NCBI RefSeq assembly: GCF_002159915.1
Contig: NZ_NFJP01000001.1
Coordinates: 62,001-126,000 of the forward strand
Length of the DNA stretch: 64,000 bases
Direction: 5' to 3'
Source of the DNA: Gordonibacter sp. An230
Lineage (GTDB): Bacteria; Actinomycetota; Coriobacteriia; Coriobacteriales; Eggerthellaceae
Shown: positions 27,619 to 51,950 of the stretch, piece after piece
Numbering within the stretch: position 1 is the stretch's first letter
Layout of the letters: each line of letters begins with the position of its first letter
Program-made: the position numbers and the translations under genes
The notes under the pieces: generated by a model
The model's database searches: none
The model's input: only the letters and a program-made list of their open reading frames with translations
What the model was told of the DNA's origin: nothing

Positions 27619-28535
27619 TGACGCTTCCACAGCATGTGCATCGAAGAGCGAAACGGCGCGGCCATCCCAGGGGGTAGCAACAAGTTCGCAAGCTGGTTGC
27701 GCGAGTGAGCGCAACTCGCTTTCGAGCGTTTCGTTCTTTGATAGGCTTCCCTTCATGCTTGCTTGTGGTCGCCATCGGCCGAACGTTCTCGATGGGAGGG
27801 TGCCTGTCCTTGAGCGACCATGACCCGTCGTGATGCGCTACTTCGATCTGGCATGCCCGTATGATAGCCGTTGCAGTGGCGCTCACTACGGATTGGTGCG
27901 CTCGCAAGATATCTGAAATGAGAGCAATCCCTTCGTGACGTTGCCCAATCGGGCGCCTCATTTGTCGTGTCCGAAAAAGAGTGAGGTGGCTGATGGGCGG
28001 ATGCGAACCGCTTGCAAACATAGAGCAGACCGAAACCGTACGCCTCTCGGTCGCAAAGGGCTTCGCTCGAGCATAGAGGGCAAATCTCGATCCGGGGTGG
28101 GGAAGGCGCGAAAGCGACGGTTTCCGAGCGAGGCGAGCCTGGTTTGCTTGACGTTTCGTGCGGTGGGGGGGGGGCTTTCGCAGCTTCATTATTGAAGTCG
28201 TCTGTCCTCGTGATTCGTTTGCGTGTCGTGCGCCTCTTTGTTGGGCGCACGACGAGGACCGCACGCCCCACGCGATGTCCACCGTCCTTTTAATGCCGAC
28301 ACAAAGCGTGCGGCGAAGACGGGGATGCACATATCATACGTTTTCCCATCAAAGTGCCGATGAGAATTCGAAGGGTCAAGAAACGCGGGAATCCAAAAAA
28401 GCATTACTTACTGTTCGTTTATTGTGCGCTTGCTAAATCAAAACGTTTGGCATAGCATAGCGGAGATTATATTCGTGCACATCACAAGTAATTCGAACCA
28501 TGTGACGCCATTTTCGGAAAAGAAAGGAGGAGGAG
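27619..28535. other. 0.9 kb spacer with a ten-G tract, no confirmed gene
   Basis: A run of ten G lies at 28165-28174. On the minus strand a frame starting MKLRKPPP near 28192 enters this run, and after a frame change would continue into a Cys-containing stretch (ICPLC). Coding is not established. Weak promoter-like TTGGCA/TATATT sequences lie at about 28447-28475 before the surface protein gene. Confidence 0.45.
28165..28174. repeat. Homopolymer of ten G (intergenic)
   Basis: Same length as the tracts inside the two surface-protein genes, and 370 bp upstream of the first one. Confidence 0.85.
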
Positions 28536-31500
28536 ATGCCTGCGTTCAGAAAGGCAACCGCCGTGGCGCTCTCCGTCGTGTTAGCGCTGGGCTTCGTCCC
28601 GGCCCAGGCACTCGCGAAGATTGATGTAGGGGGGGGGGTACTAGCTTCGTTCAATGAGTCTCCGTCCGAGACCCCTGCGGTAAACAGTGACCTTCAGGAC
28701 GGTACAGAGGTGGATTCTGCACCTGAGGGAGGCGATGCCGCAACTGGAAAGGACACCCCCTTGTTCCCCGATGGAGAGGATGCCGCTGAGGAAGTGCCGT
28801 CTTCTGCGGCGCAGGGGCAACAGGACGCTATCCAAGGAGGGGGTGCGATCGATCCCGTTGAGGAACGGAGTCTTCAAAGTGCCGGGGCGTCCGAAGCTCA
28901 AAGCGCCGTGGAGCCTGACGTGGGTTCGGAAGAGGTTATAGCTAAAAGCGATTCCAGAATTGATGAACTGAAATGCGAGTTCGAAGATGGCCACCTCATT
29001 ATCAAGGGCGGTAGGTGGAGGGGTGTCTGGCCGGTTGTCTTTGACGAAGGACAAGTGCTCTCTATAACCATCGAAGACACCGTTACCTCTGGTACGGGTA
29101 ACTTTGATTATCTGTTCGCCGGTTTCTCTTCGCTCACCAGGATTGAGGGGCTGGAGAATCTCGATATGAATAGCGCCTATTCTTGTACCAGCATGTTTCA
29201 AGAGTGTGAAGCTCTGACATCCGTAAAAGGCGTCGAGGACTGGGACGTCTCCAATGTGACGAGAATGGACGCGATGTTTAAGGGCGACCTTGCCTTGGAG
29301 TCCCTCGAGCCCCTGAGAAAATGGGACGTCTCCAATGTGACAAACATGATCGAGATGTTCAGCGGATGTTCGTCCGTGACATCCCTCGAGCCCCTGAGAA
29401 AATGGGACGTCTCCAATGTGACAGACATGAACGTTATGTTCAGCGGATGTTCGTCCGTGACATCCCTCGAGCCCCTGGGAGAATGGGACGTCTCCAATGT
29501 GCAGCTTCTAAACGACATGTTCGACCGTTGCACGGCCTTGACGTCGCTCGAGGGCCTTGAGAAATGGAAAGTCCAAAATGTGATATCGGCGCACAGGTTG
29601 TTCAATGGCTGCACGGGATTGACCTCCGCCGAGCACATTGCCGATTGGAAGATGCCGAATAATCCCACGATGTTAAATTTTTTTAACAATTGCTATTCGC
29701 TCGAGAGAGTTTCGCTGTCCATGAACCTAGAGAAGAATGTCGGGAACCACGAGGGCTTCTTTTCTGGCTGCAAGAGTCTCTGGATGGTTGAAGTGGGCGA
29801 AGGCGGAGTAGCGTTCCCTTCCGATGCTGCAGATATCGGACTCTCGGGCCTGTGGGCGAGAGGTGCCGATGCGGATGCCGCCTACGACTCCTTCGAGGTG
29901 CTCGACGCCAATGGCATTGCTGGCCTCCCCGATCAGTCGGGTACGTGGGTGCGTGTGCCCGACATCACCAGTTATGAAGTATCGGGCCTTTCCGATCCCA
30001 GTGAAGGTACGGAGCTCGACCGTGACGTGGCGGTTTCCGTCAAGCAGCGTTCCTTCCAGAGCGCTTCTCAGCTGAACGACTCTCAGCAGAACGACTCGAC
30101 GCTTTGGCATGGTCCCGATCCGGTCGTGGAGTCTGTTGAATGGCATGTCGGCGGTATCGATGGTGAGCTCGTACCCGAGGGCGAACCGGCTGACGCATCG
30201 AAATCGTACACCGCTCGCATCAAGATATCTATTCCGGCTTCGACTGCTGAGAAGGAACGCACGAATGTGACCCTCGATGGGGCTCAGGCCGATTACGTCA
30301 TAGAGGGCCGGTCGATTCTCATTACCAGATCGTTTCCTGCGACTGCGGCAGATGTGGACGTAACGCTCGACATCTTTGATGAGATTGTGAGTGTTTCGGG
30401 TGACGTTGCAGCTCCCTCCGACATTTCTGTTGAGGGTCTGCCCATGGGCGTCGAGCCCGACTGGAAGTTTAATGGAAAGGACGGCTGGTTTTTCAGCCTG
30501 GCTCCTGCGCTCGACTCGGATGAGTGGAAGGCCCAGGGCGACGTGCATCACGACTTGAGCCTTTCCGGCATCGGCAATTCAGGCAAGCTTTGGTCGCAGG
30601 ATTTGGCTGTTCACGGGCGTCCTGCCGCTCCGCAGACGGTTTGCACGCCGGCGGTGGGTTCGGCTTCGGGCGATCCCGGTGAGGGCTCGATATCGTTGCC
30701 TGACGATCAGCAGGGCCGTACCTACCAGTTCAGAGAGGTCGGCAATGGGTCGTGGGCCGAGTGGCCCAAAGAAGTGGTATCGGTTGCGGCCGGCTCCTAC
30801 GAGGCTCGTGTCACCCCCGTTCAGGTGGACGACCATGTGGGCTGGGCTGCTTCGGTGCCCGCATCTGCCGAGGTTAGCCAGATCTGGCCGGTCTCGTTGT
30901 CCTTCGTCGATGTCGCTACCGATGAGCCGCTTGGCACGGAGCCTGTGGGTGTACTGCGCGACGATGGGTCGGTCAGCTATGATGGTAAACCTAGTGACGG
31001 GCTGGTTACGGAGGGTCTTGGCTCCAAGCTCCCGGTGTTCTTTGAAGGTGAGGGTACGTTCGAGGTGCCCGGCTACGATATCGTCCGCATCGAGTGGAAT
31101 ATTCAGGAAGGGGAATCTCGCATCCTGGAAGGCGACGATCTTACGGAGGCCCTCGCAGGAGCCGGCCCCGCTGCGGACGGTCCCGTCGAGGCGAAGTACT
31201 ATCTTAAGGAGCGTCGCTACGACGTGTCTTGGATCGTAAACTTCGACAAATCGTCTACTGACGGAGAGGAGCCTAAGGGTTCGGTCGATCCCGGCATCCC
31301 ATCCGTTCAAAGCGTGGGGTGGACCGAAGAGACGCGCTGCGAGCTTCTGGTCGACCTGAAAGGGAGTTCATCGTACTGGAACCCCGACGACCCCACGTGG
31401 GTCGAAAAATACTTCCCCGACCTTGAGCCTGGCGATAAGCCTATCGATCCCACCGAGATCAGCTGGGGATCGTACGTGCGCGACCCTTGGGTGTTGCACC

Positions 31501-34235
31501 TTGCCGACGGAACCACTCGCCCCTTCCAGGTGGCTAGCTCCCTTTCCGTGATTGCGGAGGGGGGTATCTCGCCAGCCGATTTCGGCACGTCGTCGACAGG
31601 CGAGGCTGTCACGTGGCGCACGATGGACGGACTGTCGTTCTCGGCGACCTATCGTCAGGCCGTAGGCGTCTATGCGGGCCGTTTCTCAATTCCCGAGGAG
31701 TATTCCGCGCCGGATTCCGATGGGCGCTACGGTCCCTTGAAGAATGGCAACGGCAACAACTCCCGCACCTCGGCCCTCGACCCTGGGGCGTCTTTTGGCG
31801 AGCCGCCGATCTTCGACGCAGGTGGTAGCGCACCCGACGCGCAGGGCCTTTTCCGTTCCAGCGCTCTGGTGTTTTCTGGCTACTACTTCGATGTCAACGA
31901 GAAATACGACTTGGACGGCGACGAGGGTGCCGAGCGTCGCTGGGCCGAGACCGACTCCTCCGGCCCGGTCACGGTCGAGGACAATTTGGCTGCGGCTTAT
32001 GGCGAGCTGGTGGATTACGATCCAGATTCCTTCAAAGGCAGGCGTCCAATCTATATGGACTCTAAGGAGGGGGCCGGGCTGACGGGCGACCAGATTGCGG
32101 AGATAAAGCCGGAGGCGCTGTTCTCGCTGACTGCGCGCATTGAGGACGCTGGCCTGAAGTCATCGTTGTCCCTCGATGCTCCCGCCATAGAGGAGGGCGG
32201 GGCTTTGGACGGGGTGCTTTCGCTTTCGGCTCGCGACCTGTTCGACTCCGCTTCGGTTTCGGGTGCCAGCTCCGTTTCGTTCGAAGTGGGCCAGCCCTCG
32301 TTCACTCCGGACAAGGGCGACGGATCTTGGCTGCGCGCTTATGTCGCGAATGACGGGTACATCGGCACAGCACAGGATTCCGCTATGGTGTCTTTGTCGG
32401 TTCGCGGACTCAAGCAGGGTTCTTACGGCGGGACGCTGACCGTGCCCTACACCTACACCGATTCGATAGGTCGGACGCACAACCTTTCGCTTGAGCAGAG
32501 GATCGAGCTGGACGTCTATCCTGCCGGTGCCGTGACCGTCGCAGACGGCTGGGCTGTGGCAGCCCACCCCTACGCCACGACGACGGCGATGGCCTCCTTG
32601 GAGCTTGCCGATGACGCAGGGCTTGCCAAGGCATGCGGCCTGACCGTGTGGAAGGAGAATGGGGACGCTTGGGACGTTCAGGCCGCCGATTCCTATTCCT
32701 TCTCCGCCGAACCCTCCTCGCTCGCCGGCGCGGCGGCTGGCGTTCATGCCGTGCGCTTCGACGTGGTGCCAGGGACGGAGACGGCATCGCTGTCGGCTGC
32801 TGCCGACATCTCCCTCTTTGATGGGGGAGAGCCGAACCTGTTCTTCAACGATGCGGCTGTGACGTTGCCCGAGAAAGACGCTGAGGCTGCACTGGGCGAC
32901 GCGGCGCTCGGCGTATGGCTTGCCGCCGAGACCGGCGCGAAGGCTTTCAATCCGGCAGAGAACTGGGCTGAGGTGCCGGTCGTCGTGTCCGATCCTTCGA
33001 ATGTGAGGGATGCGGGTCCGGATGCTGTTGGCGGTCAGGCTTCCTTCGAGGCGTACTCGGTTGCTGGCGGTCCGGCGCACACGGCTTCGATTTCGTTCGT
33101 CAAGGCGCCGCTGCCTGCGGCACCCGTTCCGGGCAGCCAAGACGCTTCCGTCACCACCGATACGTCGCTGGCAGTGGGCGCTGCCTCATGGCGTGAGGCT
33201 CTTCCGGAGGGCTGGGCCGGTGCTGCCGAGAGTGGCGGTTACGCTCCGGGGTTGTCCTACTCCTGCGTGCCTTCGAGTGGCTCGCGTGCGGAGTCGGGCT
33301 CTCCGGCGTTCGAGGGGCTTGAGCCCAACTCCCGTCATGAGGTGAGCGCCTCTTGGACGCTCACCGATGAAGCAGCCCAGGTGTGGGAGGCGCCAGTGGA
33401 GCCTTCCGAGCCTGTTGTCGCTTGGACGCGTCCCTCGGCACCGGAATCGTCCGCTCTTCCTGCAGACGGGCTTGATGCGAGCTTCGATCTGACTGCCGGC
33501 ACGCTTGTCCTCTCGGGCGGTCAACAAGGTGGTGCGGGCTATGCGACTGTGGCCCGCGCTGCCGATGGATCCGAGCTTTCCGATGGCAGTGCCGTTCTGG
33601 GTCTCGCTGGGGAGCAGCTGTCCATTGTGCGTGTTGGTTCGGAGAGCGGCTTGGAGTCGGAGTCCGTCGGGCTTGCGGTTCCCGAGCGTTTCGCGGTTCC
33701 CGCACCCTCGCTTTTCGAACCGCAGGGTTCCGACGGCCCGGCATATCTCGTCGGGTTCGATCCGGCTACTGCGGCTGCGGGGCTCTACCTTGCTCGCGTC
33801 GACGGTGGCGCATGGGAGCCGGTGGCTGTGTCCGCCGATGGAACGCTTGAGGTTACGCGTGGCCACAGTTGGGAGTTCATGATCGCCGGCGGTGTGGTCG
33901 ACGGTGTGCCGCGCTTCTCGTCAGAGACGTCGGTTTCCGTGGCGGTTCCCGGTGCGACCGATCCCAATGAGCCGACGGATCCTGGCGAGCCTACGAACCC
34001 CGGCGGCTCCAACGGCCAGGGTGGCCAAGGCAGCCAGGAGGACGGGTCTACGAACTCCGGCGATTCCGATGCCCAGGAGGTGCAGGGTGGTGGACAGGCT
34101 CAGGCCGCTCTGGTGCGGACGTCCGACTCTGCAGCGCCTGCCGCGTCCTTGGCGGCCTCTGTCGCCGTGGCAGCCTTCGTCGGCATGATCGCGGCTACGT
34201 GGACGTCGCTGCGTCGGCGTGGCGGCGAGAAGTGA
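28536..34235 (+). CDS. Giant BspA-repeat (DUF285) cell-surface protein with phase-variable G tract
   Basis: The 1,899-residue protein has a Sec signal peptide (residues 1-27, cleaved near AQALAK). A run of ten G at 28629-28638 encodes GGG at about 32-34. An acidic low-complexity stretch follows. At about 215-400 there are BspA-type leucine-rich units with the core WDVSNVT.M..MF, three of them nearly identical at the DNA level with 81-bp period. A long series of beta-rich Ig-like domains follows. The C-terminus has a Pro/Gly/Asn linker, LVRTSD, a hydrophobic segment (about 1868-1888) and RRRGGEK, resembling a sortase signal although LPxTG is absent. RBS AAAGGAGGAGG. It is presumably exported and anchored; a role in adhesion is inferred from the fold. 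At ten G the frame is open. Confidence 0.85.
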   Translation: MPAFRKATAVALSVVLALGFVPAQALAKIDVGGGVLASFNESPSETPAVNSDLQDGTEVDSAPEGGDAATGKDTPLFPDGEDAAEEVPSSAAQGQQDAIQGGGAIDPVEERSLQSAGASEAQSAVEPDVGSEEVIAKSDSRIDELKCEFEDGHLIIKGGRWRGVWPVVFDEGQVLSITIEDTVTSGTGNFDYLFAGFSSLTRIEGLENLDMNSAYSCTSMFQECEALTSVKGVEDWDVSNVTRMDAMFKGDLALESLEPLRKWDVSNVTNMIEMFSGCSSVTSLEPLRKWDVSNVTDMNVMFSGCSSVTSLEPLGEWDVSNVQLLNDMFDRCTALTSLEGLEKWKVQNVISAHRLFNGCTGLTSAEHIADWKMPNNPTMLNFFNNCYSLERVSLSMNLEKNVGNHEGFFSGCKSLWMVEVGEGGVAFPSDAADIGLSGLWARGADADAAYDSFEVLDANGIAGLPDQSGTWVRVPDITSYEVSGLSDPSEGTELDRDVAVSVKQRSFQSASQLNDSQQNDSTLWHGPDPVVESVEWHVGGIDGELVPEGEPADASKSYTARIKISIPASTAEKERTNVTLDGAQADYVIEGRSILITRSFPATAADVDVTLDIFDEIVSVSGDVAAPSDISVEGLPMGVEPDWKFNGKDGWFFSLAPALDSDEWKAQGDVHHDLSLSGIGNSGKLWSQDLAVHGRPAAPQTVCTPAVGSASGDPGEGSISLPDDQQGRTYQFREVGNGSWAEWPKEVVSVAAGSYEARVTPVQVDDHVGWAASVPASAEVSQIWPVSLSFVDVATDEPLGTEPVGVLRDDGSVSYDGKPSDGLVTEGLGSKLPVFFEGEGTFEVPGYDIVRIEWNIQEGESRILEGDDLTEALAGAGPAADGPVEAKYYLKERRYDVSWIVNFDKSSTDGEEPKGSVDPGIPSVQSVGWTEETRCELLVDLKGSSSYWNPDDPTWVEKYFPDLEPGDKPIDPTEISWGSYVRDPWVLHLADGTTRPFQVASSLSVIAEGGISPADFGTSSTGEAVTWRTMDGLSFSATYRQAVGVYAGRFSIPEEYSAPDSDGRYGPLKNGNGNNSRTSALDPGASFGEPPIFDAGGSAPDAQGLFRSSALVFSGYYFDVNEKYDLDGDEGAERRWAETDSSGPVTVEDNLAAAYGELVDYDPDSFKGRRPIYMDSKEGAGLTGDQIAEIKPEALFSLTARIEDAGLKSSLSLDAPAIEEGGALDGVLSLSARDLFDSASVSGASSVSFEVGQPSFTPDKGDGSWLRAYVANDGYIGTAQDSAMVSLSVRGLKQGSYGGTLTVPYTYTDSIGRTHNLSLEQRIELDVYPAGAVTVADGWAVAAHPYATTTAMASLELADDAGLAKACGLTVWKENGDAWDVQAADSYSFSAEPSSLAGAAAGVHAVRFDVVPGTETASLSAAADISLFDGGEPNLFFNDAAVTLPEKDAEAALGDAALGVWLAAETGAKAFNPAENWAEVPVVVSDPSNVRDAGPDAVGGQASFEAYSVAGGPAHTASISFVKAPLPAAPVPGSQDASVTTDTSLAVGAASWREALPEGWAGAAESGGYAPGLSYSCVPSSGSRAESGSPAFEGLEPNSRHEVSASWTLTDEAAQVWEAPVEPSEPVVAWTRPSAPESSALPADGLDASFDLTAGTLVLSGGQQGGAGYATVARAADGSELSDGSAVLGLAGEQLSIVRVGSESGLESESVGLAVPERFAVPAPSLFEPQGSDGPAYLVGFDPATAAAGLYLARVDGGAWEPVAVSADGTLEVTRGHSWEFMIAGGVVDGVPRFSSETSVSVAVPGATDPNEPTDPGEPTNPGGSNGQGGQGSQEDGSTNSGDSDAQEVQGGGQAQAALVRTSDSAAPAASLAASVAVAAFVGMIAATWTSLRRRGGEK
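28629..28638 (+). repeat. Ten-G slippage tract in the surface protein gene (in frame)
   Basis: G10 starts about 93 bp after the ATG, just downstream of the signal peptide. Loss or gain of one or two bases would truncate the protein. Confidence 0.85.
29300..29545 (+). repeat. 81-bp tandem repeats encoding BspA units
   Basis: Three copies of CCCTCGAGCCCCTG-type units start at about 29302, 29383 and 29464 with near-identical sequence in between. A more divergent unit precedes them. Confidence 0.85.
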
Positions 34236-47107: not shown

Positions 47108-50100
47108 ATGAAGAAGCACGACCAGACGCTGGCGCGCAAGGCGACCGCCGTCGGCGTGGCGCTTGTCTGCGCGTTCGGCATGGTGCCTTCAGGGGCCTAC
47201 GCAGGCTCGTCTTCGTCTATTGAGCAGACGGGGGGGGGGTCTAATCTCGGCCAATGACGCCGAGGTTTCCGCGATGCCGGACGGCGTCGCGGAGGCCGGC
47301 AAGGCCGGTGAGGTCTCGCTGGCAGAAGCGTTTCCCAACGAGGCGTTCCGCGAATACGTCGCCGACCGTTTCGATCAGGACGGCAACGGCTCGCTCAGCG
47401 AGGAGGAAATCACCCAGGCGATCTCCATCTATATCACCGATGCCGAGATGGCGGGCGCCATTACAGATCTTACGGGCATCGAAACCTTGACGAATCTCAG
47501 TGATGTCACGATTTATGGGCTTGGCGCAGCGAATGTGGATTTGACCGGCAACGAGAACGTGACGTTCCTCGACATCTCGAACTCGCCCGCGGTGACGACG
47601 CTCGATATCTCCAATTGTTATCTCCTGACGAACTTGTCGATACAGAACACGGGTATCTCAGAGCTCGAGCTGCTCGACAGCGTGCGTTATCAGCTGTTTA
47701 TCGGCGGCTCTCGGATCAATGGCCTGGATGTGCCATCTAGAGCGGTGCAAATTACCCTCGATGCGGAGGGCGGCACGCCTCTCGCGTGGCTGAGCTCCGC
47801 CAATAAATACATGACCGTTCAGGCCGAAGAGAGCGTGGGCGGCAGCGCTTCCGAGATCGAGGAGTACTCCTCTACGGTTCCCGTGAAGGCTGCCGAGGAC
47901 GGCACGGTCAACCTCGAAGAATCGTTCCCGGGCCTCGATCCGAGCAAAGTTGACGGCGTCGTGGGCGCCGACTACGACAAAGCCACGGGCGTCCTCTCCA
48001 ACGTAACCGACACGGTGACCTACACCTATGAAACCGGCATCAACGACTTCACGCTCAACGTCACGCTCAACGTGGACACGTCCGATGTTCCCGTGCCGCC
48101 GGGCATCAACATCGCCGAGGCCTTCGCGAACGACGATTCGTTGCGCGAGTACTTCGAAAAGGTGAAAGACGAGAATGGGGACGGCTATCTGAGCGAGGAG
48201 GAGGTCGCCTCCATCTACGAGGACGGCGTCTGGCTCGACGCCATTGACGGAGGGGTTGGCGGCTGGTTCCCTGGCGGCGTTGAATCGCTCGACGACTTGG
48301 TGACGAATCTTCCCGGCCTCACGATTCTCCATGCTGGCAAAAACGCCATCCCGGGCGCCGATCTCACGGGGCTCGAGCAGCTCAGCAACCTCGATATGAC
48401 GGACGGCGAGGGCGGCAGCACGAGCCTCGGCTGGCTCAACGTTGACGGGCTCGAGAACCTCACGGCCGATAAGTGCATCCTGCCCACCACCACCAAGGCG
48501 CTCGAGCTTGCAAACGACGATCCGCGCACCACGAACCTCAAGACGCTCTTCCCGGGCATCGACCTTTCCAAGGTGGAGAACCCGCGTGGCGCTGGCGTCT
48601 ACGACGCGAAGACGGGCGAGCTGAGCGATCTTCTAGGTGGCGGCACGTTCACCTACACCTACAATGCCGGTACCATTGCGGATGGTCAGAAGGTCACGTT
48701 CGACGTGAACATTGAGGTTGCGGTCGAGGACACAGACGTTTCCGTCGACCCGATGAGTTTCCCCGACGATGCGTGGCGCTCCTATGTTGAGACGAATCTC
48801 GACAAAGACGGGGTTCAGAACTCCCTCACCGAGTATGAACGCTCGCTGGTCACCGAGCTTTCTGGTCTGCCTGAGGGCATCGAGGACCTCACGGGTATCG
48901 AGCATTTCGCAAACCTGGAGACGCTCGACTGCTCGGGGCTTTCGCTCGGGGCGCTCGACCTGTCGGGCAATTCCAAGCTGACGACGCTCGACTGCTCGGA
49001 CAACCAGCTCACGTCGCTCAGCCTTGAGCAGAACGCGGCGCTTTCTGCCATCAAGGTGGCGGGCAACCCGCTTATGTGGGTCAAATTGAGCCCCGAGGCC
49101 ACGATCACCGGATCCGACCTTGCGCAGGGCGGCGCGGGCTACGGTTTGACGGTGGATGGCGCGCCGTTCGACATGACTCTGTTTTTGCCAGGCATCGAGA
49201 TCGACCGGGTCAGCGACGTGGTGGGCGCAACGCTCACGGGCACCGAGCTTTCGGATTACTCCCAGGGAACGCCTGTCGCGTACAGCTACGACACCGGGGC
49301 CAAGGACGGCAGCGGCCAACCCGTGTTGTTCGCGGGCGAGCTCGACCTCACGGTGGGCGAACCCCAGTTCCCCGACCCTGTGTTCCAGGCGTACGTGAAC
49401 CGCAACTTCGAGAAGAACGGCCAGATCGGCCTGCAGCAGGACGAGCTTAAAGCCGTCAACAGCATCAACGTGAGCGGCTTGGGCATCAAGAGCCTTGAGG
49501 GCATCGAGCTGTTCACCGAACTGACGTCGCTTGATTGCTCGAACAACCAGCTTACCGAACTTGATGTCGCGCATAACACCAAGCTTGCAAGCCTCAACTG
49601 CTCGCACAACCAGCTGAGCGCGTTCAACCTTGCCAACACGGGTGGCAGCGCTGTTTCGACCAACATGCTTACGCAGCTCGATCTTTCGTACAACGAACTG
49701 CGCACCGTCGATCTGACGCAGCTGTGCAACGCCTCTGCGGGCGACGAGACGGTTACGGCGACGGTCAACCTCGAGGGCAACGACGCGCTGGTGGGAGTTG
49801 ACTTCCCGCCCAGCAGCAAGATTCACGTCGATGCGACCCTGCCGCAGGACAACGTGATCGACATTCCCCTGCCGGCAGGCGCGACGAGCTTTAATGTGAC
49901 GGACGAGCCGCTCGGTGTTGCTCCGTCCAACGTCTCCCTGCGGGGCGTGGAAGGCCACGTGGGCTACGATATGGCCACCGGCGAGGCTTCGGGTGTGGTT
50001 CACGGCGAGGCCATCATCATGACGTACCGTACTCACGGCTACGATGCGGACGGCGCGGCTATCGACTACGAGGTCACTTTGAACCCCGTGGTGGACGGCG

Positions 50101-51950
50101 GCGAGGTGGATCCGGGCATCGAGATCAGCGAGGCCAACTTCCCCGACGCGGCCCTGCGCGACTTTTTGGGCGGCTACGACGAGAACGGCAACGGCTTCCT
50201 GAACGAGGACGAGCAGCAGGCGCTCACCTCGCTGAACGTCAGCGGCAACGCGGACATCAAGAGCCTTGCCGGCATCGAGAAGCTGACAACCGTCAAATAT
50301 CTCGACATCAGCAACACCACGGGCATTGAGGCGCTCGACGTGTCCGCCATGCCCAGCCTGCAAATGCTCACGGCTCAAACCTCCGCCCTCAAGACGCTTG
50401 AGCTGGGCGAGGCTCCCGAGCTGGCAACGGTGAACCTGCTCGACTCGCAGGTGGAGAGCTTGGACATCGCGGGCTGTAAGAAGCTGGGATCGCTTTCGGC
50501 GGCGGGCAATCCGCTCACGAGCATCGCCATCGGCTCCCAGCCGGCGCTCGGCACGCTGGAGCTGGGCGGCACGGGCATCGCCGAGCTTGACGTGACGGGC
50601 TGCCCGAAGTTGCAGAACCTCAATTTCGACCAGACCGACGTGACTTCCATCGATCTCTCGCAGTGCCCCGAGCTCATGCACCTGTACTGCGGAAACGCGG
50701 CCATCGAGAGCCTGGATGTGACGGCCAACACGAAGCTCGAGATTCTGTGGGCTCCCGCGTCCCAGCTCTCCGGGCTCAAGATTGCGCCGGAGAACGATCC
50801 TGCGTTCAAGACGATCTACGTTTCGGGCACGCCTATGACCGATCTGGACGTCTCGATGCTGCCGCATCTTGAGGAGCTTCAGATGGAGGGCCTGGGCAAG
50901 GGCGTCGCCGGCTACGACATGGTGGGCTACGACACGACGGCGAACACCAACCTCTCGCTGCTTGAGATTGCGAACAACAACCTGGCGTGGATGCACATGG
51001 CCGACAACGAGACCACGAGGACGACCATGAGCCCCGGCTACTTCGACCTGGGGCTTCTGGACGACACGTTCGACATCGAGGAGAGGTTCCCCGGCCTGGA
51101 CGCCTCGCGCATCCGCTCCGTGGAGGGGGCCGTGCTCGACGGCTCCACGATGAGCGGCTACCGCGAGGGCGCGCCCATCGTGTACACGTACTACTGCGGG
51201 CGCTCGGGCGGCGACGCCGACTCGGGCGCCCCGGCGCCGGGCGACCAGATCCTCACGGTGACGCTGGACTTCCGCACGATCGGGGTGCGCATCGTCGAGG
51301 ACCTGAGCCGCCCGTGCGACGGCGCGCCGGTGCACGACCCCGCGACCGAGGTGCAGGGCGGCGCCGGCGAGCCCGAGCTCGCCTGGTACGAGCGCGACGG
51401 GGCCGCCGAGGGCGGCTGGCGCCTGCTGGACGGCCCGCCGAGCATGGCGGGCGACTACAAGGTCGTGGCGACCGTCCGGGGCGCCGCCGACGACGGGACG
51501 CCCGTCGTCAAGTCCGACGAGCGCCTGTTCACGATCTCGCGGAGCCCCAGCTCCATCGTGATCGAGGGCGACCTGTCCAAGGTCGAGGACGGCGAGCCCG
51601 TGGGGCTGCCGCCCTACAGCCAGACGGGCACCAAGGTCCCGCCGACGTGGACGTGGTGGGCCCTCGGGCCCGACGGCTCCTGGCGCAGGCTCGACGCCGC
51701 CCCGAGCGAGCCCGGCGACTACAGGCTCGTGGGCGAGGTGGCGGGCAACCGCTGCTACGAGGGCGCCCGCGTGGAGCAGGGGTTCTCCATCCGGGCCGAG
51801 GCCGAGCCCGCCCCGCCCGCCCCCGAGGGGCCCGCGGCGCCCCTGCCCGCCGCGGGCGACGCCGCGGGCCCGCTGGCGGCCGCGCTCGGCGCGCTCTGCG
51901 CCGCCCTGGCCGCCCTGGCCGCCGCGAGGCGGGCCCTCGGGCGCCCCTAG
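47108..51950 (+). CDS. Giant LRR/EF-hand surface protein, out of frame at a ten-G tract (phase OFF)
   Basis: ATG 47108 (after AAAGGGAATG) opens a clear signal peptide, MKKHDQTLARK, then a hydrophobic core ending SGAYAGSSS. The frame then meets ten G at 47230-47239 and stops at 47255. The rest of the protein is open in another frame to 51950. Removing one G (or adding two) joins them into about 1,613 residues. The body has five modules that start FPD..FR.YV followed by EF-hand-like loops (DQDGNGSLSEEE, DENGNGFLNEDE), each leading into leucine-rich repeats (LTSLDCSNNQLT). Two Ig-like domains follow, and the end has LPAAGD, a hydrophobic helix and arginines, a sortase-like signal. As sequenced, only a 49-residue peptide would be made. 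Confidence 0.82.
47230..47239 (+). repeat. Ten-G slippage tract (out of frame)
   Basis: G10 lies about 122 bp after the ATG, just past the signal peptide. With nine G the two frames join. Confidence 0.85.

What the first reader, a model, noticed from the sequence alone, without database searches (positions are those of the whole stretch)
47108..47300. Second giant surface protein is split by a ten-G tract: phase-OFF allele
A signal-peptide frame (start 47108) runs into ten G at 47230-47239 and stops at 47255. The long protein body, beginning right after the tract, is in another frame. Deleting one G fuses signal peptide and body exactly. The tract sits just past the signal peptide. Slippage at such tracts is an established on/off switch for surface proteins in other bacteria; applying it here is inference.
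Basis: partly seen in the sequence, partly recalled or inferred. Interest (0 to 1): 0.9.

Follow-up and report, generated by a model that had tools for sequence, protein, structure and literature searches.

The report
Slipping G-run switches giant surface protein
A gut bacterium (a Rubneribacter) carries a giant surface-protein gene cut in two by a run of ten Gs just after its export signal, and several sister genes in this and related species carry the same kind of run in other lengths, so the gene looks like a random on/off switch caught in the off position.

Summary
A signal-peptide frame starting at 47108 meets G10 at 47230-47239 and stops at 47255-47257. The long body is in the next frame, open for 1,569 codons; a tract of nine (or twelve) joins them. 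The genome is a Rubneribacter (Eggerthellaceae). Runs of 9-11 G form a separate length class in it (9: 60, 10: 61, 11: 18), mostly between genes. In three Rubneribacter genomes I found 11 large secreted-protein genes with such a tract in or just after the signal-peptide region: 4 in frame, 7 out of frame (one call ambiguous), all with undamaged bodies as far as read. In a VWA-protein family the tract sits at the same place in seven genes of four genera, with lengths 9-12. No MutS1 was found in the genus. Seven of the 11 genes carry a second G-tract upstream. Best reading: a slipped-strand phase-variable surface protein, assembled OFF. The closest precedent is the pilus G-tracts of Bifidobacterium breve. 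No reads or second strain could be tested, so switching itself is inferred. New member of a known kind.

The parts
47108..47257 (+). signal-peptide ORF, 49 codons, stop at 47255-47257 with the ten-G tract
   Evidence: purine-rich AAAGAAAGGG about 8 bases before the ATG
47230..47239 (+). G10 tract, the proposed slipping switch; 9 or 12 joins the two frames
47241..51950 (+). body of the giant surface protein (LRR, EF-hand-like loops, LPAAGD-type sorting end), 1,569 codons in the other frame
28536..34235 (+). first giant surface protein, 1,899 aa, DUF285/PARCEL repeats, in frame (ON) as assembled
28629..28638 (+). G10 tract just after the signal peptide of the first giant
28165..28174 (+). second G10 tract, 464 bases upstream of the coding tract of the first giant

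Best explanation
The locus is a phase-variable (contingency) gene for a giant sortase-type surface protein of leucine-rich repeats with EF-hand-like loops. Shown: the tract, the frames, the intact body, the recurrence of the layout in the genus, and length differences between homologous tracts. Inferred: during replication the G10 tract slips by one base at high frequency. Lengths of 9 or 12 join signal peptide and body and give a secreted, wall-anchored protein (ON). Lengths of 10 or 11 end translation soon after the signal peptide (OFF). The assembled allele is OFF. The absence of MutS1 probably lets slips go unrepaired. Sister genes would switch independently, so a population would carry many combinations of surface proteins.
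For: Frame structure. Paralog on contig C50 with aligned signal peptide and aligned G9 tract, in frame, 1,844 aa open after it. First giant with G10 at the same place, in frame. Eleven Rubneribacter genes with the layout, 4 in frame and 7 not, close to the one third expected if length drifts freely. VWA family: seven tract-bearing genes in four genera with lengths 9, 9, 10, 10, 11, 11, 12; the same-genus pair G054 and G056 has 12 and 9. Two-peaked run lengths and genus-level abundance of G10 runs: 61, 52 and 23, against at most 21 in any other family genome and mostly under 10. Body constraint: dN 0.28, dS 0.65 against the paralog in well-aligned codons, GC3 0.855 against 0.857. Sorting-type C-termini, read by eye. 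MutS1 in 0 of 3 genus genomes, in 11 of 14 controls. Precedent in Bifidobacterium breve, where signal and LPXTG parts are split by a G-tract and slippage was measured (PMC9187656).
Against: No reads, second strain of the same species, transcripts or proteins were available, so no length change was seen directly. The genome is a 73-contig draft and one contig ends in a 73-G run that is probably an artefact. The focal gene lacks the second, upstream tract that seven of the eleven genes have. Most long G runs in this genome lie between genes, so general accumulation of G runs is part of the background.
Confidence: 0.85

Rival explanations
1. Sequencing or assembly error: the true tract is a fixed nine G and the gene is simply intact.
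For: Draft genome in 73 contigs; a 73-G run at the end of contig C4 shows that G artefacts entered the assembly. Nine is the length of the paralog's tract.
Against: Seven genes in three separately assembled genomes would need errors at the same kind of site, while others with G9 and G10 are in frame. Homologous tracts differ in length in other genera too. Even a fixed nine would leave a slippage-prone tract.
Confidence: 0.07
2. Fixed frameshift: the gene is a pseudogene on its way out.
For: The assembled frame is broken and no strain with an unbroken copy of this gene was available.
Against: The body has 1,569 open codons with no other lesion, coding-like GC3 equal to its in-frame paralog and dN/dS below 1. 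The same single lesion at the same place recurs in other genes with undamaged bodies.
Confidence: 0.05
3. Programmed slippage: RNA polymerase or the ribosome slips at the G-run and makes a fixed fraction of full-length protein without DNA change.
For: G10 is a possible slip site, and a strong hairpin follows the focal tract (z about -3.6).
Against: The hairpin is not shared: seven sister genes score -2.3 to +1.9. Sister genes in frame at 9 or 10 would be damaged, not helped, by such slippage. Lengths vary between homologs instead of holding one phase. It could still add a little protein to an OFF allele.
Confidence: 0.03

Closest known systems
Bifidobacterium breve UCC2003 sortase-dependent pilus loci bbr_0113 and bbr_1889 (PMC9187656)
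   Same: Signal-peptide ORF and a large LPXTG-type ORF divided by a G-tract (G10 at bbr_1889); slippage joins them; also a gut Actinobacterium
   Different: Those are pilin genes in operons with a dedicated sortase; here the protein is an LRR giant with no pilin domain found by Pfam. Slippage was measured there and is only inferred here
Neisseria opa genes (PMC3960869)
   Same: A repeat in the leader-peptide-coding region toggles the frame of many surface-protein genes independently
   Different: The repeat is CTCTT, not a homopolymer; Gram-negative outer-membrane proteins
Helicobacter pylori sabA (PMC2715451)
   Same: Repeat tracts in both promoter region and coding region, like the seven two-tract genes found here
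   Different: Unrelated protein; the focal gene itself has only the coding tract
Eggerthella lenta capsule switching (PMC13174815)
   Same: Reversible surface variation in the same bacterial family
   Different: Works by DNA inversion; homopolymers are not mentioned

Membership tests
Simple-sequence-repeat contingency (phase-variable) locus | repeat tract longer than chance | tested here: met
   two-peaked run-length counts
Simple-sequence-repeat contingency (phase-variable) locus | tract placed so that a one-base change turns the product on or off | tested here: met
   frame tables
Simple-sequence-repeat contingency (phase-variable) locus | rest of the gene intact | tested here: met
   1,569 open codons; GC3 and dN/dS
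Simple-sequence-repeat contingency (phase-variable) locus | tract kept in homologs but with different lengths | tested here: met
   paralog G9 against G10; VWA family 9-12; between genes and species only
Simple-sequence-repeat contingency (phase-variable) locus | reversible length change within one strain | not testable with these tools
   no reads and no second strain of the species
Simple-sequence-repeat contingency (phase-variable) locus | expression follows tract length | not testable with these tools
   needs proteomics or reporters
Bifidobacterium-type pilus G-tract switch | G-tract between signal-peptide ORF and sortase-anchored ORF | tested here: met
   the sorting signal was judged by eye
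Bifidobacterium-type pilus G-tract switch | pilin domains | tested here: not met
   Pfam finds LRR and EF-hand families only
Bifidobacterium-type pilus G-tract switch | dedicated sortase gene in the operon | not tested
   genes downstream of 51950 were not searched for a sortase
Internalin J (NF033187) | score above the curated cut-off | tested here: not met
   159.6 bits against 1700

The most novel reading that the evidence does not exclude
Rubneribacter and relatives in the Eggerthellaceae run a repertoire of giant surface proteins under two-level slippage control: a G-tract in or just after the signal-peptide region sets on or off, and a second G-tract 148-464 bases further upstream, in the probable promoter region, tunes expression. 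About 140 long G runs in this genome, mostly between genes, would make many other genes variable too.
Probability: 0.4. Interest if true: 0.65.

Novelty: new member of a known kind. Interest (0 to 1): 0.52.

Why it matters
It extends slippage-driven surface variation to a family of gut Actinobacteria where, in the open-access papers I could search, only capsule switching by DNA inversion in Eggerthella lenta turned up. Gut bacteria face phages and antibodies, so random on/off surface proteins could explain mixed behaviour in clonal cultures and why such genes look broken in single genome assemblies. Annotation pipelines are likely to call these genes shortened, frameshifted or lacking a signal peptide. 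It can be tested directly with existing strains and short amplicons.

Tried and rejected
A family-wide DNA pattern tied to the GxVPxxAxA signal-peptide ending plus eight or more G found only the two window genes and one G060 hit that I did not follow up; it was too narrow. A pattern for RKATAV found only the focal gene and its C50 paralog. Searching the focal protein in named genomes found nothing; purD was used instead to name the genus. One Pfam call failed because of wrong coordinates for L287 and was not repeated. RNA folding: a strong hairpin follows the focal tract (z about -3.6), but seven sister genes lack one of that strength (z -2.3 to +1.9), so a shared RNA-stimulated frameshift was rejected. 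Internalin J membership was rejected: 159.6 bits against a cut-off of 1700. Several weak census hits (L012, L017, L046, L107, L215, L305 and others) were dropped by judgement because start, hydrophobic stretch or body did not look like a secreted protein. No structure prediction was run; it would not bear on the switch.

Full report
OBSERVATION. The tract is GGGGGGGGGG at 47230-47239. From ATG 47108 the frame reads MKKHDQTLARKATAVGVALVCAFGMVPSGAYAGSSSSIEQTGGGSNLGQ and stops at 47255-47257. The body opens in the next frame and runs 1,569 codons to the stop ending at 51950. A tract of nine gives one frame from the signal peptide into the body; ten and eleven do not. No other start before or just after the tract gives a signal peptide.

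WHERE IT IS. The window is 62001-126000 of contig C1 of a 3.88 Mb draft in 73 contigs. PurD of the window is 94% identical to that of Rubneribacter badeniensis, the closest named match, so I take the genome to be a Rubneribacter, family Eggerthellaceae. The held genus has three genomes, G000 to G002.

THE PROTEIN. Pfam finds leucine-rich repeats and EF-hand-like loops in the body. The C-terminus has LPAAGD, a hydrophobic stretch and arginines, a sortase-type sorting signal by eye. It is not an internalin J by the curated cut-off. The first giant (28536-34235) carries PARCEL/DUF285 repeats.

ARE LONG G RUNS UNUSUAL HERE? The genome has 60 runs of exactly 9, 61 of 10 and 18 of 11. In a 433 kb sample, counts drop to 3 and 2 at lengths 7 and 8 and rise to 7 and 6 at 9 and 10, so the long runs are a class of their own. 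Within the family, G000, G002 and G001 have 61, 52 and 23 runs of ten; no other listed genome has more than 21 and most have fewer than ten. Of 143 distinct runs of nine or more, about nine in ten lie outside called genes, although about two thirds of the sequence is called coding (my gene calls are crude). Long G runs alone are therefore background. What stands out is the few that lie inside genes at the signal peptide.

THE LAYOUT RECURS. I took stretches round tracts in the three Rubneribacter genomes and looked for a start codon, a signal peptide and a long open body on either side of the tract, allowing the tract to change by one base. Eleven genes qualified by inspection. G000: 28629 G10 in frame; 47230 G10 out; C50:366 G9 in; C1:169939 G9 out; C41:5906 G9 in. 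G002: C80 G10 out; C13 G11 out; C73 G10 out (an upstream TTG start would make it in frame, so this one is ambiguous); C27 G10 out (GTG start, probable). G001: C43 G10 in; a second C43 gene G9 out. The tract lies either after the cleavage site or between the start codon and the hydrophobic core. Four of eleven in frame is close to one third; if such genes were normally kept in frame, this mix would be very unlikely. The bodies, up to 2,468 codons, are open as far as read. The census is not exhaustive for G001 and G002, where I mainly followed runs of ten.

HOMOLOGOUS TRACTS DIFFER IN LENGTH. The focal gene and its C50 paralog align through the signal peptide and into the tract, with ten and nine G. 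The VWA protein of C41 has homologs across the family. Seven genes of this family, in four genera, carry a G-tract between start codon and hydrophobic core: G000 C41 9, G002 C80 10, G002 C13 11, G032 10, G041 11, G054 12, G056 9 (alignment). For G041 the start codon is unclear. Other homologs lack the tract. G054 and G056, of one genus, have similar flanks but 12 and 9 G. This is what a slipping tract should look like over evolutionary time.

SELECTION ON THE BODY. In well-aligned codons against the paralog dN is 0.28 and dS 0.65, and third-position GC is 0.855 against 0.857. The out-of-frame body is thus kept as coding sequence.

WHY IT MAY SLIP. No MutS1 match was found in the three genus genomes, while the same search rings in 11 of 14 control genomes. 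Lack of this mismatch repair would leave slips uncorrected; that step is inference. I did not test MutL or NucS.

RIVALS. An assembly error of a fixed nine cannot be excluded without reads, and the 73-G run at a contig end suggests that G artefacts occur; but it would not explain the out-of-frame genes in three genomes or the variable homologs. A dead gene is unlikely given the intact body. Transcriptional or ribosomal slippage could add some protein from an OFF allele; the strong hairpin after the focal tract is not shared by sister genes.

A SECOND TRACT UPSTREAM. Seven of the eleven genes have another run of ten or more G, on the same strand, 148-464 bases upstream of the coding tract. At the run density of this genome I expect about 0.1 in eleven 600-base stretches (my estimate). 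The focal gene does not have one. Helicobacter pylori sabA is a published case with tracts in both promoter and coding region (PMC2715451; abstract).

WHAT IS KNOWN. The nearest precedent is Bifidobacterium breve UCC2003, where the Sec signal and LPXTG parts of two pilin genes are separate ORFs divided by a G-tract. Length mixtures were measured there, including the G10 locus bbr_1889 with about 10-12% additions and omissions in mouse gut, and joining the frames gave pili (PMC9187656). Neisseria opa genes switch by CTCTT repeats in the leader-peptide region (PMC3960869). For this family my searches found only capsule switching by inversion in Eggerthella lenta (PMC13174815), which does not mention homopolymers. 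Subscription papers were not searchable.

VERDICT. A phase-variable surface-protein gene, assembled OFF, is much the best explanation. The mechanism is known; the bacterial family and the protein types are new as far as I could search.

Noticed in passing
window 28165-28174; L111:3677; L131:12451; L335:1208; L127:4089; also upstream in L221 and L287: A second long G-tract, same strand, lies 148-464 bases upstream of the coding tract in seven of eleven genes; in L111 and L127 promoter-like sequence follows it (read by eye).
   Followed up: partly
whole genome G000: About 140 runs of nine or more G, mostly between genes and some close upstream of starts; a possible set of variable promoters far beyond the surface proteins.
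   Followed up: partly
L012:1502-1511 (contig C7, minus strand): A G10 run ends three bases before an ATG start, between it and the upstream sequence, where its length would change ribosome-site spacing.
   Followed up: no
L120:11047 (contig C4:81047): G10 about 150 bases upstream of a 2,061-codon secreted-protein frame; tract upstream only, not in the coding part.
   Followed up: no
L048:6632 to contig end (C4): A 73-G run at the contig end, probably a sequencing artefact.
   Followed up: no
genus Rubneribacter: No MutS1 match in any of three genomes.
   Followed up: partly
window 47243-47293: Strong RNA hairpins just after the focal tract (z about -3.6), not shared by sister genes.
   Followed up: partly
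L094:301-310 (G106) and L098:900-908 in reverse orientation (G112): G10 and G9 tracts, both in frame, in signal-peptide regions of large proteins in other genera of the family.
   Followed up: partly
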